From Rubrivivax sp. (GTDB lineage Bacteria; Pseudomonadota; Gammaproteobacteria; Burkholderiales; Burkholderiaceae_C), in contig JALHOU010000027.1 of NCBI GenBank assembly GCA_022842825.1, positions 1-32,350 of the forward strand: 32,350 nt of DNA. The letters are read 5' to 3'. The notes beneath the pieces were generated by a model. That model was not told where the DNA came from and ran no database searches. It saw nothing but the letters and a program-made list of their open reading frames with translations. Below, piece after piece: positions 15,840 through 26,348 of the stretch (positions are counted from its first letter, which is position 1; the number at the start of each line of letters is the position of its first letter). A program made the translations under genes and the position numbers.

Positions 15840-17498
15840 TCAAGGCAGCGGCATCACGGGATGTCGGTTCACCGTTGAGGGCTGGGGTCCAATCAAGGGC
15901 TCCGACTGTGGCGACGATGGATTATCCCATCGGCCTTGCGTGGCCGGCCCCGCCGCCGCCTCGGCCTGGAGCGGAAACCAAAGGGTCACGGTGGTTCCCT
16001 GCCCCTCCTTGCTGTCGATCTCGATGCGGCCGCCCTGGAGTTCCACAATCTCCTTGACCAGGCTCATGCCAAGGCCGGTGCCGGGGATGTTTCCACTCGG
16101 GTCGGCCCGGTAGAAGCGTTCGAACACGCGTGCCAGTTGCGGCGCACTCATGCCGATTCCCGGGTCGCGAACGCGCACACCCAGGGTGGGCTGGCTCTCG
16201 AGTCGCCCGGGCACGAGGTCGACCCTGATCTCCCCGCCCGCGGGCGAGTACTTCACCGCGTTCGAAAGCACATTGCTCAGGGCCTGAACCGTCTTGTCCC
16301 GATCCAGCCGGGCGGTGGCCGGGGCGGTGCCTGGCGTCCCCAATGACAGCGCGATGCGGTGCATGCGGTCGCCCACGTGCTGGGCTTGTACGGCCTCCTG
16401 CACCAGCTCGGTCAGGTCCACGCTCCTGCGCTGCAAGACCTGCCCCTGGCGCGACTCGATGCGCGCTAGATCGAGCAGGTCGTTCACCATCGTGATCAGG
16501 CGTCCGCACTGGCGGTGGATGGTCTGCAGCACGTCGCGTCGCCGCGTCTCGTCGATCGGGCGGTTGAGCAGGAGTTCGGTGAAGCCGAAGACGCTCACCA
16601 TCGGCGTGCGCAATTCGTGCGCGGCGGTTGTGAGGAATTCGCTCTTCATGCGGTCGACTTCGAACTCGGCGGTGATGTCGCGCAGATAGATGGCCAGCGC
16701 ACCGTCCTCGCTGCGCCGCGCGCTGATCTCCACCACGCACGCACGCGGGCGTGCCAGGCGCAGCACGCGGGAAGGCGTGTCGCCTCGTGCGGCCGCGCGT
16801 TCGGTGGGGTCTGCAGCGGCGCCACCGAACCAGGGGCCGCAGGGTTGCCCGGGTTCGAGCAAACCTGCCAGGTGCGCGTCCAACGCGGCCGCGGTCAGGC
16901 CCGGCAGCTGCTCGCGACGCATGTCGAGCATGCGAAGCAGCGCGCCATTGGCGTGCAGCACGTGTCCGCCCGGGTCGACCAGCACCATGCCGTTCTGGCC
17001 CAGCTCCAGGATGGTGTCCATCTGCTGCGAGCGCCGTCGGGCACGCGTTGCCATGCGCTGGGTGTCATCCATGGACGTCTGCATGGACCGGGCCAGAAGC
17101 AGCATCTCGCCCACGGCATCGTGGGGCGCGAAGTCATCGAACGCAAGGCCGTGCGCGCGCATCTCCTCCATCGACCCGAGCACCGGCGACACGAGGAGCA
17201 GGACGGTGCCGTCGTCGAACACCTCGCAACTGCCGCGCAGCGACAGCCGAGGCTGGCTCAACGACCTGAGCGTGCACAGGTCGGCACCATGCTCGCGCCA
17301 GGCCTGCACGCTGTCGGCGCCGCGCGGACGGCTGACCTCGAAGCAGCCGGCCAGCGGCATGCCCTCGTTGAGCGCTGGCATCGCCTTGCCCAGCGAGGCG
17401 CCACGGCCCCGAATGCGCAACTCGGCGTCCAGCGACAGGTGGAACGGGAACGCGCGCTCGAGTCGCGCGCCGGAAAGCGCGAGCACGGGTGCGTTCAC
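15840..17498 (-). CDS. HNOBA-PAS sensor histidine kinase (H-NOX associated)
   Basis: N-terminus LERAFPFHLSLDAELRIRGRGASLGKAMPAL...LRGSCEVFDDGTVLLLVSPVLGSMEEMRAHGLAFDDFAPHDAVGEMLLLARS matches the heme-NO-binding-associated domain pattern. Kinase core AAHELRTPMVSVFGFTELLL, NVLSNAVKYSP and GTGLGMSLVKEIVELQGG. GTG start overlaps the H-NOX stop. Confidence 0.9.
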   Translation of the reverse strand: MNAPVLALSGARLERAFPFHLSLDAELRIRGRGASLGKAMPALNEGMPLAGCFEVSRPRGADSVQAWREHGADLCTLRSLSQPRLSLRGSCEVFDDGTVLLLVSPVLGSMEEMRAHGLAFDDFAPHDAVGEMLLLARSMQTSMDDTQRMATRARRRSQQMDTILELGQNGMVLVDPGGHVLHANGALLRMLDMRREQLPGLTAAALDAHLAGLLEPGQPCGPWFGGAAADPTERAAARGDTPSRVLRLARPRACVVEISARRSEDGALAIYLRDITAEFEVDRMKSEFLTTAAHELRTPMVSVFGFTELLLNRPIDETRRRDVLQTIHRQCGRLITMVNDLLDLARIESRQGQVLQRRSVDLTELVQEAVQAQHVGDRMHRIALSLGTPGTAPATARLDRDKTVQALSNVLSNAVKYSPAGGEIRVDLVPGRLESQPTLGVRVRDPGIGMSAPQLARVFERFYRADPSGNIPGTGLGMSLVKEIVELQGGRIEIDSKEGQGTTVTLWFPLQAEAAAGPATQGRWDNPSSPQSEPLIGPQPSTVNRHPVMPLP

Positions 17499-18058
17499 GG
17501 CGCGATGGCCATCACTTCATGTCGCACGCGGAAGGTGTCGTGTGCGCCGGCATCGGTGCGGGCCGCTACATGCTCCACCTCGACTTGCTGGCCGAAGCGT
17601 TTGGCCAGTCCCTTCACGAGGCCAGCCACCATGGGCGCAAGGCCGGCGCGCTCCGACTCGTAGTGAAGCAGATACTCGTCCTCGTCGAGATCCTCGACGC
17701 GGAAGCGCGGCAGGCGCATCTTCGTGAAGATCGTCTCCACGCGGCCGTGCATGGCGTTCAGGTTGCCCAGGAACGAGCGCAGGTCGCTGCCGCCGGCGCT
17801 CATCAACTCGCCGTAGCCTTCGTCGGCGGTGTAGAGAACCCAATACTCGCCAAAAGCTTCGAGCACCTGGTGCGCCGTGAGGCCGAGCTCTTCGCTCACG
17901 GCACCGACGAGCTTGTAGGTGATGTCGTCGTGGTAGGGGCACATGGCGACGAAGCCGTCGCTGTCCACGCCGGCGCGGTGGCAGACCCGCTCCCAGGCGG
18001 CCTCGCCGCGCGCCGATACGACCAGCTGCTCGATGGCTCGGTTGACCAGTCCGTACAT
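17495..18058 (-). CDS. H-NOX (heme-nitric oxide/oxygen binding) domain protein
   Basis: MYGLVNRAIEQLV N-terminus, LNAMHGRVETIF (candidate proximal His), MRLPRFRV (conserved Pro), LHYESERAGLAPMVAGLVKG (YxSxR heme-propionate motif). Confidence 0.92.
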   Translation of the reverse strand: MYGLVNRAIEQLVVSARGEAAWERVCHRAGVDSDGFVAMCPYHDDITYKLVGAVSEELGLTAHQVLEAFGEYWVLYTADEGYGELMSAGGSDLRSFLGNLNAMHGRVETIFTKMRLPRFRVEDLDEDEYLLHYESERAGLAPMVAGLVKGLAKRFGQQVEVEHVAARTDAGAHDTFRVRHEVMAIAP

Positions 18059-18096
18059 GTCGGGTGTCCTTGGCTGTGAAGGGAGGGAAGGCGCGA

Positions 18097-24919: not shown

Positions 24920-24955
24920 ATTGCTCGAAACCTGATCACGAACGGCCATACCCGC

Positions 24956-25609
24956 ATGTCCGACACCTACTCGACGCTGGAGGTCGCGCGCCTGCTGGGC
25001 ATGGCGGTGCGTTCGGTGCAGTTGATGGTGGACCGTGGCGAACTCGCGGCATGGAAGACGCCGGGCGGCCACCGCCGGATCCTGCGCGATTCGGTGGAGC
25101 GCTGGCGCGCCGAGCGCGGCCTCGCCGCAAACGCGACAGCCCGCTCCGCCCAGCGCACGGCCGAAACCGCGCGCGAGCCTGCCGCCGTGGCGGCTGCGGC
25201 CGCCGAGGCCGGCGAGCCCGACACGCCCGTGGTGCTGCTGATCGAGGACTCCAAGCACTTCCAGAACCTCATCAGCCTGCTGGTCAGGCAGCACTTCCCG
25301 GGCGTGGACCTGCAGGTCGCCGACGACGGGATCGCCGGGCTGGCGATGGCCGGTCGGCTGCGACCGCGATTGCTCATCGTCGACATTCTGCTGCCGGGCA
25401 TCGACGGCGCCGCGCTCATCGGCAGCCTCAGGCTGCATCCGCAGTTCGCTGGCATGCAGCTCGTCGTCGTGACGTCGCTGGACGAGGCGCAGCGCGAGCC
25501 CTACGCCTTCGCGTTGCAGGACGTGCCGGTGGTGCACAAGCCGCGGCTCGTGGCCGAACTGCCGCCCCTGCTGCGCACGCTGCTCGTGCCGCAGGATCTC
25601 GATGCCTGA
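24956..25609 (+). CDS. Excisionase/MerR-type HTH DNA-binding domain fused to a C-terminal response-regulator receiver
   Basis: MSDTYSTLEVARLLGMAVRSVQLMVDRGELAAWKTPGGHRRILRDSVERW (helix-turn-helix), then VVLLIEDSKHFQNLISLLVRQHFPGVDLQVADDGIAGLAMAGRLRPRLLIVDILLPGIDG (receiver). Confidence 0.88.
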   Translation: MSDTYSTLEVARLLGMAVRSVQLMVDRGELAAWKTPGGHRRILRDSVERWRAERGLAANATARSAQRTAETAREPAAVAAAAAEAGEPDTPVVLLIEDSKHFQNLISLLVRQHFPGVDLQVADDGIAGLAMAGRLRPRLLIVDILLPGIDGAALIGSLRLHPQFAGMQLVVVTSLDEAQREPYAFALQDVPVVHKPRLVAELPPLLRTLLVPQDLDA

Positions 25610-26348
25610 GGCGCTACGCGTGCTGCTGATCGAGGACGACGCCTCGATCCGCCGCTTCGTCGCCATGGCCCTGGAGGACGAGTCGCTGCAGCTGGCCATG
25701 GCTGCCAGCCTGGGCGAAGCACGGGCGCTGCTGGGCAGCGGCGAGATCGACGTCGTCATCGCCGACCTCATGCTCGGCGATGGCAACGGCCTGGATCTGC
25801 TGGCCGAGCTCGGCCCGCGCGCCGGCCTGACGCGCATCGCCTTCAGCGCAGGCATCGATCGCACGACGCGTGCTCGCCTGGACGCCATCGGCGTCACCGA
25901 GGTGCTTTCCAAGCCGGTGTCACTGGCGGCGCTCCAAGAGACGGTGGCTCGCGCGCGCGTCGCAGCGAGCGGGGCCATCCCCTCGACTCGTGCAGCCGTG
26001 CTTGCAAGGCCCGGGACCGCCCTCGAGACGGCGGCCGTCGAACGCTACTTCGGTGGCGAGCGCACGCTGTACGAGATATACCGCCAGCAGTGCTTGGCGC
26101 AGTTCGCGGAGGACCTGCGCCAGGGCAACGAGGTCGCCGCCGGCAGCGACGCGCCCGCGATGCGCCGCTTGGCGCACAGTCTCAAGAGCGTGCTCACGAT
26201 GCTGGGGCACGAACCGGCAGCCGCCCGCGCGCGAATGATGGAAGAGGCAGCCGCCGACGCAGACGCGGCGCGTGCCGCTGCTCTGTGGCAGGACCTCGCG
26301 GCAACGCTGCAGGCGCTGCGCGCAGCCGGGGACGACGATGCCCGCTGA
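25602..26348 (+). CDS. Response-regulator receiver fused to an HPt domain
   Basis: VLLIEDDASIRRFVAMALEDE...DVVIADLMLGDGNGLDLL...VTEVLSKPVS (receiver) and MRRLAHSLKSVLTMLG (HPt motif, His codon 26175-26177). 8-bp overlap with the upstream gene. Confidence 0.87.
   Translation: MPEALRVLLIEDDASIRRFVAMALEDESLQLAMAASLGEARALLGSGEIDVVIADLMLGDGNGLDLLAELGPRAGLTRIAFSAGIDRTTRARLDAIGVTEVLSKPVSLAALQETVARARVAASGAIPSTRAAVLARPGTALETAAVERYFGGERTLYEIYRQQCLAQFAEDLRQGNEVAAGSDAPAMRRLAHSLKSVLTMLGHEPAAARARMMEEAAADADAARAAALWQDLAATLQALRAAGDDDAR

What the first reader, a model, noticed from the sequence alone, without database searches (positions are those of the whole stretch)
15840..26348. Multi-input signalling island: H-NOX + HNOBA kinase + LOV kinase + pseudokinase + receiver + PAS kinase + HD-GYP, divergent from HTH-receiver and receiver-HPt
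Seen: seven collinear minus-strand genes (24847 down to 15840) with gaps of about -4 to 88 bp, and two divergent plus-strand genes overlapping by 8 bp. Established: H-NOX proteins commonly partner with kinases or c-di-GMP enzymes (e.g. the H-NOX/HnoK network of Shewanella controlling HD-GYP and EAL outputs), LOV domains sense blue light, and HPt domains relay phosphate. Inference: NO (H-NOX/HNOBA) and blue light (LOV) signals may converge on a shared phosphorelay with transcriptional (HTH-receiver) and c-di-GMP (HD-GYP) outputs. I am not aware of a described system with this exact composition, but I could not search for one.
Basis: partly seen in the sequence, partly recalled or inferred. Interest (0 to 1): 0.88.

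Follow-up and report, generated by a model that had tools for sequence, protein, structure and literature searches.

The report
Swappable NO/light kinases on shared hub
A betaproteobacterial (Rubrivivax-like) gene cluster couples a nitric-oxide-sensor-linked kinase and a LOV (blue-light or redox) kinase, which share nearly the same kinase core, to a conserved 'dead' kinase plus stand-alone receiver that occurs widely in Betaproteobacteria and carries its own predicted control element.

Summary
In detail: all nine genes are present at the stated coordinates with the stated domains. The cluster is not a one-off. A core of catalytically dead kinase (PSHK), stand-alone receiver (REC) and PAS/LOV membrane kinase recurs across Betaproteobacteria: of 58 dead-kinase loci with flanks, 57 have the REC, 55 the kinase, 46 the HTH-receiver. 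The H-NOX + HNOBA-kinase pair is an optional input, and in some genomes it stands where the LOV kinase would be. In this genome the HNOBA-kinase and LOV-kinase cores are 66% identical, against at most 35% to any other kinase. A kinase-core tree rejects a single origin of the HNOBA kinases (p = 8e-12), so the sensor was attached to this core repeatedly. This supports convergence on one receiver. PAS kinase and receiver-HPt form a separate, co-occurring add-on. I also found tandem 9-bp direct repeats (TATCAnnnn, the period of BldC sites) at two fixed places, before the HTH-receiver and before the dead kinase; in the 5.7-Mb genome close matches occur only there. Light and NO sensing, phosphotransfer and c-di-GMP output are inferred, not shown; the LOV has its cysteine but lacks the usual glutamine. 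New variant of a known kind (multi-input two-component hub).

The parts
15840..17498 (-). HNOBA-PAS-histidine kinase (phosphoacceptor His294), NO-type input kinase
   Evidence: Pfam HNOBA 4e-17, HisKA, HATPase; core 66% identical to the LOV kinase core
17495..18058 (-). Stand-alone H-NOX: proximal His104 and Y-x-S-x-R (residues 133-137) present
   Evidence: Pfam HNOB 6e-49; best solved relative Nostoc Alr2278 1e-51; only H-NOX in the genome
18097..20745 (-). Membrane PAS-LOV-PAS histidine kinase: LOV Cys440, Asn472, Asn482 present, usual Gln is Leu503; His654
   Evidence: Pfam; LOV matched to solved LOV kinase 9vf7 at 3e-28; residue table
20747..21124 (-). Stand-alone receiver (REC), most conserved signalling part of the module (Asp54, Thr85, Lys107 in the 125-aa reading)
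   Evidence: Pfam 4e-26; median 65% identity over relatives against 31% for PSHK; alignment A3
21201..22352 (-). Pseudokinase PSHK: PAS + DHp without His + degenerate ATPase + conserved C-terminal helix (AQAQRYAxDLAxLMxR); likely start 22331
22355..22381 (.). Second predicted operator, TGCCATTTC TATCATTTT GAGCAGAAG (9-bp repeats), just upstream of PSHK
   Evidence: PWM second hit in the window; 0-mismatch genome hit; period test in relatives
22420..24042 (-). PAS-PAS histidine kinase (His320), add-on with receiver-HPt
   Evidence: Pfam; co-occurs with receiver-HPt in 12 of 12 loci, p=1.5e-11
24050..24847 (-). HD-GYP phosphodiesterase without receiver domain; HD and GYP motifs intact
   Evidence: Pfam HD_5 2.5e-31; NCBIfam NosR-family PDE catalytic part 3e-34
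24856..24882 (.). First predicted operator, TGTCACTGA GAACGTTTT TAGCATTTT (three 9-bp repeats) in the divergent promoter region
   Evidence: leave-one-out PWM rank 1 in the whole window, 21.0 against 10.0 for the next site
24956..25609 (+). HTH_17 (MerR/BldC-like, KTPGGHRR) + receiver response regulator (Asp143)
   Evidence: Pfam HTH_17 7.5e-11 and Response_reg; weak match to BldC model 1.2e-4
25602..26348 (+). Receiver-HPt protein (Asp55, phosphotransfer His192)
   Evidence: Pfam Response_reg 1e-15, Hpt 5e-7
14797..15774 (-). CorA-like transporter gene, conserved neighbour marking the genomic site; role in signalling unlikely
   Evidence: ORF; adjacent in relatives at 78-98% identity

Best explanation
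The island is one member of a conserved betaproteobacterial two-component hub. Sensor kinases with a shared core (here a PAS-LOV kinase and an H-NOX-controlled HNOBA kinase) phosphorylate, or withdraw phosphate from, the same stand-alone receiver. The pseudokinase almost always encoded next to that receiver cannot phosphorylate itself and most likely acts as a binding partner that reads the receiver (DivL-like) or pairs with the kinases (RetS-like). The HTH-receiver is the transcriptional output and binds tandem 9-bp repeats before its own gene and before the pseudokinase operon, so the cluster controls its own expression. H-NOX/HNOBA is a plug-in input. PAS kinase plus receiver-HPt, with HD-GYP, is a second add-on that may link the hub to c-di-GMP. 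Shown here: gene content, conservation, kinase-core similarity, repeated sensor attachment, loss of catalytic residues, repeats with period 9 at two fixed places. Inferred: which receiver each kinase uses, what the pseudokinase binds, that the HTH-receiver binds the repeats, the ligands, and the c-di-GMP output.
For: PSHK-REC-kinase trio in 55-57 of 58 loci. HNOBA-HK/LOV-HK cores 66% identical, best of the 42 other kinase matches in the genome 35%. HNOBA kinases scattered among LOV-type kinases: 10 label changes, at least 3 forced; single clade rejected p=8e-12; in L143 the two neighbouring kinases are 82% identical, DHp 96%. HNOBA kinase in place of the LOV kinase in L077 and L092, and in L084, where the LOV_HK label goes to a short paralogous kinase. 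REC far more conserved than its partners. PSHK His absent in 46 of 48; model is PAS-DHp-CA with Foldseek matches to DivL (4q20) and RetS (7n0e, 6dk7). Repeats: period 9 in 18 of 75 PSHK upstream regions against 0-2 at other periods and 0.2 in shuffles, 8 of 50 before HTH-REC, none before REC or LOV_HK. Only two near sites in the 5.7-Mb genome, both here. A search in a distant genome hits the promoter of a second HTH-REC + PSHK-like pair. BldC repeats are 9-bp AATTXXXX(C) (PMC5859096).
Against: No biochemistry or expression data. Similar kinase cores could also reflect recent duplication with insulated partners. The repeats in the window itself are degenerate (10 and 11 of 15 core matches) and are not detected in many loci, such as Aquabacterium. 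The loci are related, so counts are not independent. HD-GYP and receiver-HPt are missing from half or more of the loci. H-NOX/HNOBA pairs with the same kinase type also occur with no recognised module genes around them (L065, L066), so the pair can use other receivers.
Confidence: 0.6

Rival explanations
1. Linear Spo0-type phosphorelay: all kinases phosphorylate REC, phosphate passes to the HPt of receiver-HPt and on to the HTH-receiver; the pseudokinase is a passive scaffold.
For: All relay parts are present in the window: REC, HPt His192, HTH-receiver; receiver-HPt overlaps the HTH-receiver gene by 8 bp.
Against: Receiver-HPt is near only 13 of 58 modules while HTH-receiver is near 46; it tracks the PAS kinase (12 of 12) and one HTH-receiver subtype (13 of 13 against 0 of 33), not the LOV/HNOBA kinases. 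An HPt elsewhere in those genomes is not excluded.
Confidence: 0.2
2. A neighbourhood of independent two-component systems (NO pair, LOV kinase with REC, PAS kinase with receiver-HPt, HTH-receiver) that share a chromosomal hot spot next to corA but not a pathway.
For: Gene order and strand vary between genomes; add-ons come and go; an internal operator before PSHK suggests separate transcription units.
Against: Near-constant trio, sensor replacement on the same core, same repeat before HTH-receiver and PSHK.
Confidence: 0.17
3. The LOV kinase is a redox or flavin sensor rather than a blue-light sensor, so the hub integrates NO and redox/oxygen state. (This can be true together with the hub explanation.)
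For: Cys missing in 31 of 71 orthologs, Gln missing here and in many; cysteine- and glutamine-deficient LOV proteins can still signal, and a redox origin has been proposed (PMC9098866).
Against: Window protein keeps Cys440 and both Asn; 21 orthologs keep Cys and Gln; closest solved structures are LOV photoreceptors; Leu for Gln retains light responses in other LOV proteins (PMC9098866).
Confidence: 0.3

Closest known systems
H-NOX + HNOBA (H-NOXA) histidine kinase pairs, and Shewanella oneidensis HnoX-HnoK-HnoB
   Same: Stand-alone H-NOX encoded next to a kinase; possible c-di-GMP link (PMC8846402).
   Different: H-NOX belongs with Nostoc Alr2278/sGC rather than Shewanella HnoX; the HD-GYP has no receiver domain; the kinase shares its core with a LOV kinase and a pseudokinase/REC hub. 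That Nostoc itself has an H-NOX/HNOBA-kinase pair is my recollection, not tested.
Caulobacter DivL-DivK-CckA
   Same: Kinase-fold protein without phosphoacceptor His working with a single-domain receiver (PMC4211667, PMC5361649, abstracts; fold match 4q20, TM 0.67 by target).
   Different: No Tyr at the H position, no hybrid kinase CckA in the cluster, different taxon, extra conserved C-terminal helix; a sequence-family relation was not found.
RetS-GacS
   Same: Kinase-like protein that modulates another kinase; Foldseek matches 7n0e and 6dk7.
   Different: RetS keeps its DHp His, to my knowledge; partner contacts here are unknown.
BldC family regulators
   Same: HTH_17 domain with GGHRR, tandem 9-bp direct repeats (PMC5859096).
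   Different: BldC is a 68-residue protein without receiver; here the HTH is fused to a receiver; sequence match to the BldC model is weak (1.2e-4, below cut-off).
Glutamine-deficient LOV receptors
   Same: Cys kept, Gln replaced by Leu (PMC9098866).
   Different: The characterised natural example is a LOV-GGDEF protein, not a kinase paired with an NO-type kinase.

Membership tests
H-NOX (HNOB) | HNOB fold over full length with proximal His and Y-x-S-x-R | tested here: met
   HNOB 6e-49; His104, YESER at 133
H-NOX (HNOB) | Binds haem and NO | not testable with these tools
   needs purified protein
Shewanella HnoX-HnoK-HnoB pathway | Response-regulator phosphodiesterase (receiver fused to the PDE) as kinase target | tested here: not met
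   HD-GYP protein has no receiver domain
LOV photoreceptor | Adduct-forming Cys and flavin-binding Asn pair | tested here: met
   Cys440, Asn472, Asn482
LOV photoreceptor | Conserved Gln in strand I-beta | tested here: not met
   Leu503; reported dispensable (PMC9098866)
LOV photoreceptor | Blue-light photocycle | not testable with these tools
   needs spectroscopy
Active histidine kinase (for PSHK) | Phosphoacceptor His in the H-box | tested here: not met
   Thr at position 118; His in only 2 of 48 relatives
Active histidine kinase (for PSHK) | N-box Asn and complete G1 box | tested here: not met
   Ala at the N-box position, RNCGV for the G1 box in the window; some relatives keep the Asn
DivL | Kinase-fold protein with Tyr in place of His | tested here: not met
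   Thr here; Ala, Thr, Ser, Asp or Arg are commonest in relatives
DivL | Interaction with a phosphorylated single-domain receiver | not testable with these tools
   receiver gene is adjacent in 57 of 58 loci; binding untested
BldC-type DNA binder | Tandem 9-bp direct repeats at target promoters | tested here: met
   period 9 only, two fixed places; that this protein binds them is not shown
BldC-type DNA binder | Match to the BldC family model above its cut-off | tested here: not met
   NF033787 21.8 bits against cut-off 77
Spo0-type phosphorelay | HPt protein always present with the receiver and DNA-binding regulator | tested here: not met
   receiver-HPt near 13 of 58 modules; HPt elsewhere in those genomes not searched

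The most novel reading that the evidence does not exclude
A previously undescribed betaproteobacterial signalling hub in which different sensor modules (LOV, H-NOX/HNOBA, other PAS) are repeatedly attached to one kinase core that serves a fixed pseudokinase + receiver pair, the pseudokinase acting as an independently evolved DivL-like reader, and a receiver-fused BldC-type regulator controlling the hub through 9-bp tandem repeats.
Probability: 0.4. Interest if true: 0.78.

Novelty: new variant of a known kind. Interest (0 to 1): 0.62.

Why it matters
It would show how bacteria add or exchange inputs (light or redox, NO) without rewiring the output: the kinase core stays, the sensor changes, and a dead kinase plus stand-alone receiver act as the fixed socket. 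The same unit occurs in culturable phototrophs (Rubrivivax gelatinosus, R. benzoatilyticus), so it can be tested directly. It also offers a concrete system for two open questions: what pseudo-histidine-kinases do outside Alphaproteobacteria, and what receiver-fused BldC-like regulators bind.

Tried and rejected
A strict 26-base consensus with 3 mismatches found nothing in the own genome, including the real degenerate sites; a looser 18-base pattern was then used, so that pattern was tuned to the known sites and the genome count is a specificity check rather than an unbiased discovery. Promoter/terminator scan gave nothing useful. EmbRS/BmfRS of Rubrivivax (PMC3684757) was considered as the same system and rejected: LuxR-type regulators and 10-TM or 7TM kinases, different genes. 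Solved-structure search with the HTH domain gave mostly spurious hits to designed repeat proteins; the only sensible match was a cobalamin-binding regulator. Roseateles hit of the repeat before cheW/mcp (L190) is not claimed, because the reversed control pattern also gives two hits there. Literature searches found no description of this cluster, but only open-licence papers were searchable.
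Full report
WHAT IS THERE. The window is a whole 32,350-base contig (C27) of a 5.73-Mb, 502-contig assembly. Its closest named relatives by the pseudokinase are Rubrivivax sp. MAGs at 84% and 76% identity. One gene was left out: corA (15774-14797), 65 bp downstream on the same strand, which marks the same genomic site in several relatives.

RESIDUES. H-NOX has the proximal His104 and YESER motif. 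Its best solved relative is Nostoc Alr2278 (1e-51), then soluble guanylate cyclase beta-1 (1e-32); the Shewanella-type H-NOX chains are distant (about 1e-8) (which chain is Shewanella is my reading of the PDB codes). The next gene carries HNOBA, the domain that accompanies H-NOX in guanylate cyclase. The LOV domain of the membrane kinase has Cys440, Asn472 and Asn482, but Leu503 where most LOV domains have Gln. Such LOV proteins exist naturally and can signal (PMC9098866). The pseudokinase lacks the phosphoacceptor His (RTDVREPL) and the complete ATP-binding boxes. Across 48 relatives the His is absent in 46, whereas a C-terminal helix (AQAQRYAxDLAxLMxR) is almost invariant. AlphaFold2 gives PAS-DHp-CA-helix (mean pLDDT 82), and Foldseek matches include DivL (4q20) and RetS (7n0e, 6dk7) among ordinary kinases. 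The HD-GYP motifs are intact, but there is no receiver domain.

CONSERVATION. An alignment of pseudokinases found 80 named loci, nearly all Betaproteobacteria: Rubrivivax, Ideonella, Piscinibacter, Pelomonas, Roseateles, Sphaerotilus, Aquabacterium, Curvibacter, Rhodoferax, Zoogloea, Thauera, Dechloromonas and others. In the 58 with at least 5 kb on both sides: REC 57, LOV-type kinase 55, HTH-receiver 46, HD-GYP 28, receiver-HPt 13, PAS kinase 12, HNOBA kinase 9, H-NOX 6. REC starts within about 125 bp downstream of the pseudokinase nearly always and is the most conserved signalling part (median 65% against 31% for the pseudokinase). PAS kinase and receiver-HPt co-occur (12 of 12, p=1.5e-11; related genomes, so not independent events).

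WHY THE TWO SENSOR KINASES PROBABLY SHARE A PARTNER. In the window's own genome the HNOBA-kinase core is 66% identical to the LOV-kinase core; the best of the other kinases reaches 35%. In L143 the two neighbouring kinases are 82% identical over the core and 96% over DHp. In L077 the HNOBA-kinase core is 75% identical to LOV kinases of related genera, and it takes the LOV kinase's place; so do the HNOBA kinases of L092 and of Ideonella paludis L084. Pfam confirms HNOBA in all ten kinases checked. On a core tree HNOBA kinases are scattered (10 changes, at least 3 forced) and one clade is rejected (p-AU 8e-12 for the nine H-NOX-linked ones; quick tree, some long branches). So the sensor has been attached to this kinase core more than once, or cores have been exchanged within loci. 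In both readings the core is kept and the sensor changes. That is indirect evidence for a common receiver; it does not say which receiver.

A PREDICTED OPERATOR. The region between HD-GYP and HTH-receiver holds three 9-bp direct repeats, for example TATCATATG TATCGTTTA TATCGTATA in L077. Pairs of T[AG]TC[AG] upstream of HTH-receiver genes are enriched at distances 9 (10 against 0.3) and 18 (11 against 0.4) only. A leave-one-out PWM ranks the true site first in all nine loci, and in the window and most of the others the second-best place lies just upstream of the pseudokinase. Independent of the PWM, tandem TATCA triplets (at least 12 of 15) occur upstream of the pseudokinase in 18 of 75 deduplicated loci at period 9, 0-2 at periods 6-8 and 10-14, mean 0.2 in dinucleotide shuffles; before HTH-receiver 8 of 50; before REC and LOV_HK none. 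In the own genome a tuned pattern has only two sites with up to 2 mismatches, both in this cluster. In a distant genome (MAG of L133) a genome-wide search found another site in front of a second HTH-receiver gene followed by a pseudokinase-like gene. BldC, whose HTH class this is, binds head-to-tail to 9-bp repeats AATTXXXX(C) (PMC5859096). I infer that the HTH-receiver binds these repeats. The window's own copies are degenerate.

MECHANISM AND LIMITS. Most likely the kinases set the phosphorylation of REC and perhaps of the HTH-receiver; the pseudokinase, encoded beside REC, reads or modulates this; the HTH-receiver controls the cluster. The NO pair is optional. HD-GYP and receiver-HPt/PAS kinase are add-ons. 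Ligands, phosphotransfer, pseudokinase partners, DNA binding and c-di-GMP effects are untested. H-NOX pairs with the same kinase type also exist with no recognised module genes around them (L065, L066), so they may have other targets.

NOVELTY. Each component type is known. The conserved pseudokinase-REC-kinase hub, its sensor exchange and its 9-bp repeat element were not found in the searchable literature, and databases name the pseudokinase only as a histidine kinase or hypothetical protein. I rate it a new variant of a known kind.

Noticed in passing
L089:14396-15025 and L092:12020-12580: H-NOX homologues that lost the haem-ligand His and the YxSxR motif but are kept in the gene order before an HNOBA kinase (pseudo-H-NOX).
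   Followed up: partly
L116:15622-17181, L125:14820-16712: HNOBA kinases of the same core with no H-NOX gene recognised in the fetched region.
   Followed up: no
L189:767-1375 (G255): A second, divergent HTH-receiver + pseudokinase-like gene pair in the genome of L133, preceded by the same 9-bp repeats.
   Followed up: partly
L190:1501-1523 (Roseateles): A 2-mismatch repeat site before a cheW-like gene and a chemoreceptor gene; may be chance.
   Followed up: no
window 24913-24922: CGGCAGAATT, conserved in register before HTH-receiver in several relatives; looks like a -10 element close to the start codon, possibly a leaderless transcript.
   Followed up: no
window 79-3289: Another HD-GYP-like gene and a GGDEF-EAL gene at the left end of the contig.
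   Followed up: no
window 5278-11931: Probable type IV pilus minor pilin cluster with a PilY1-like gene (minus strand), read from the translations only.
   Followed up: no
L077:6019-8532 and others: Relatives of the PAS kinase often have a longer N-terminal open frame (about 800-880 aa against 540 in the window); possible lost sensor part or start-site artefact.
   Followed up: no
L141, L133: Record titles (Bordetella parapertussis MAG, Gammaproteobacteria MAG) look doubtful given the content; the names should not be trusted.
   Followed up: no
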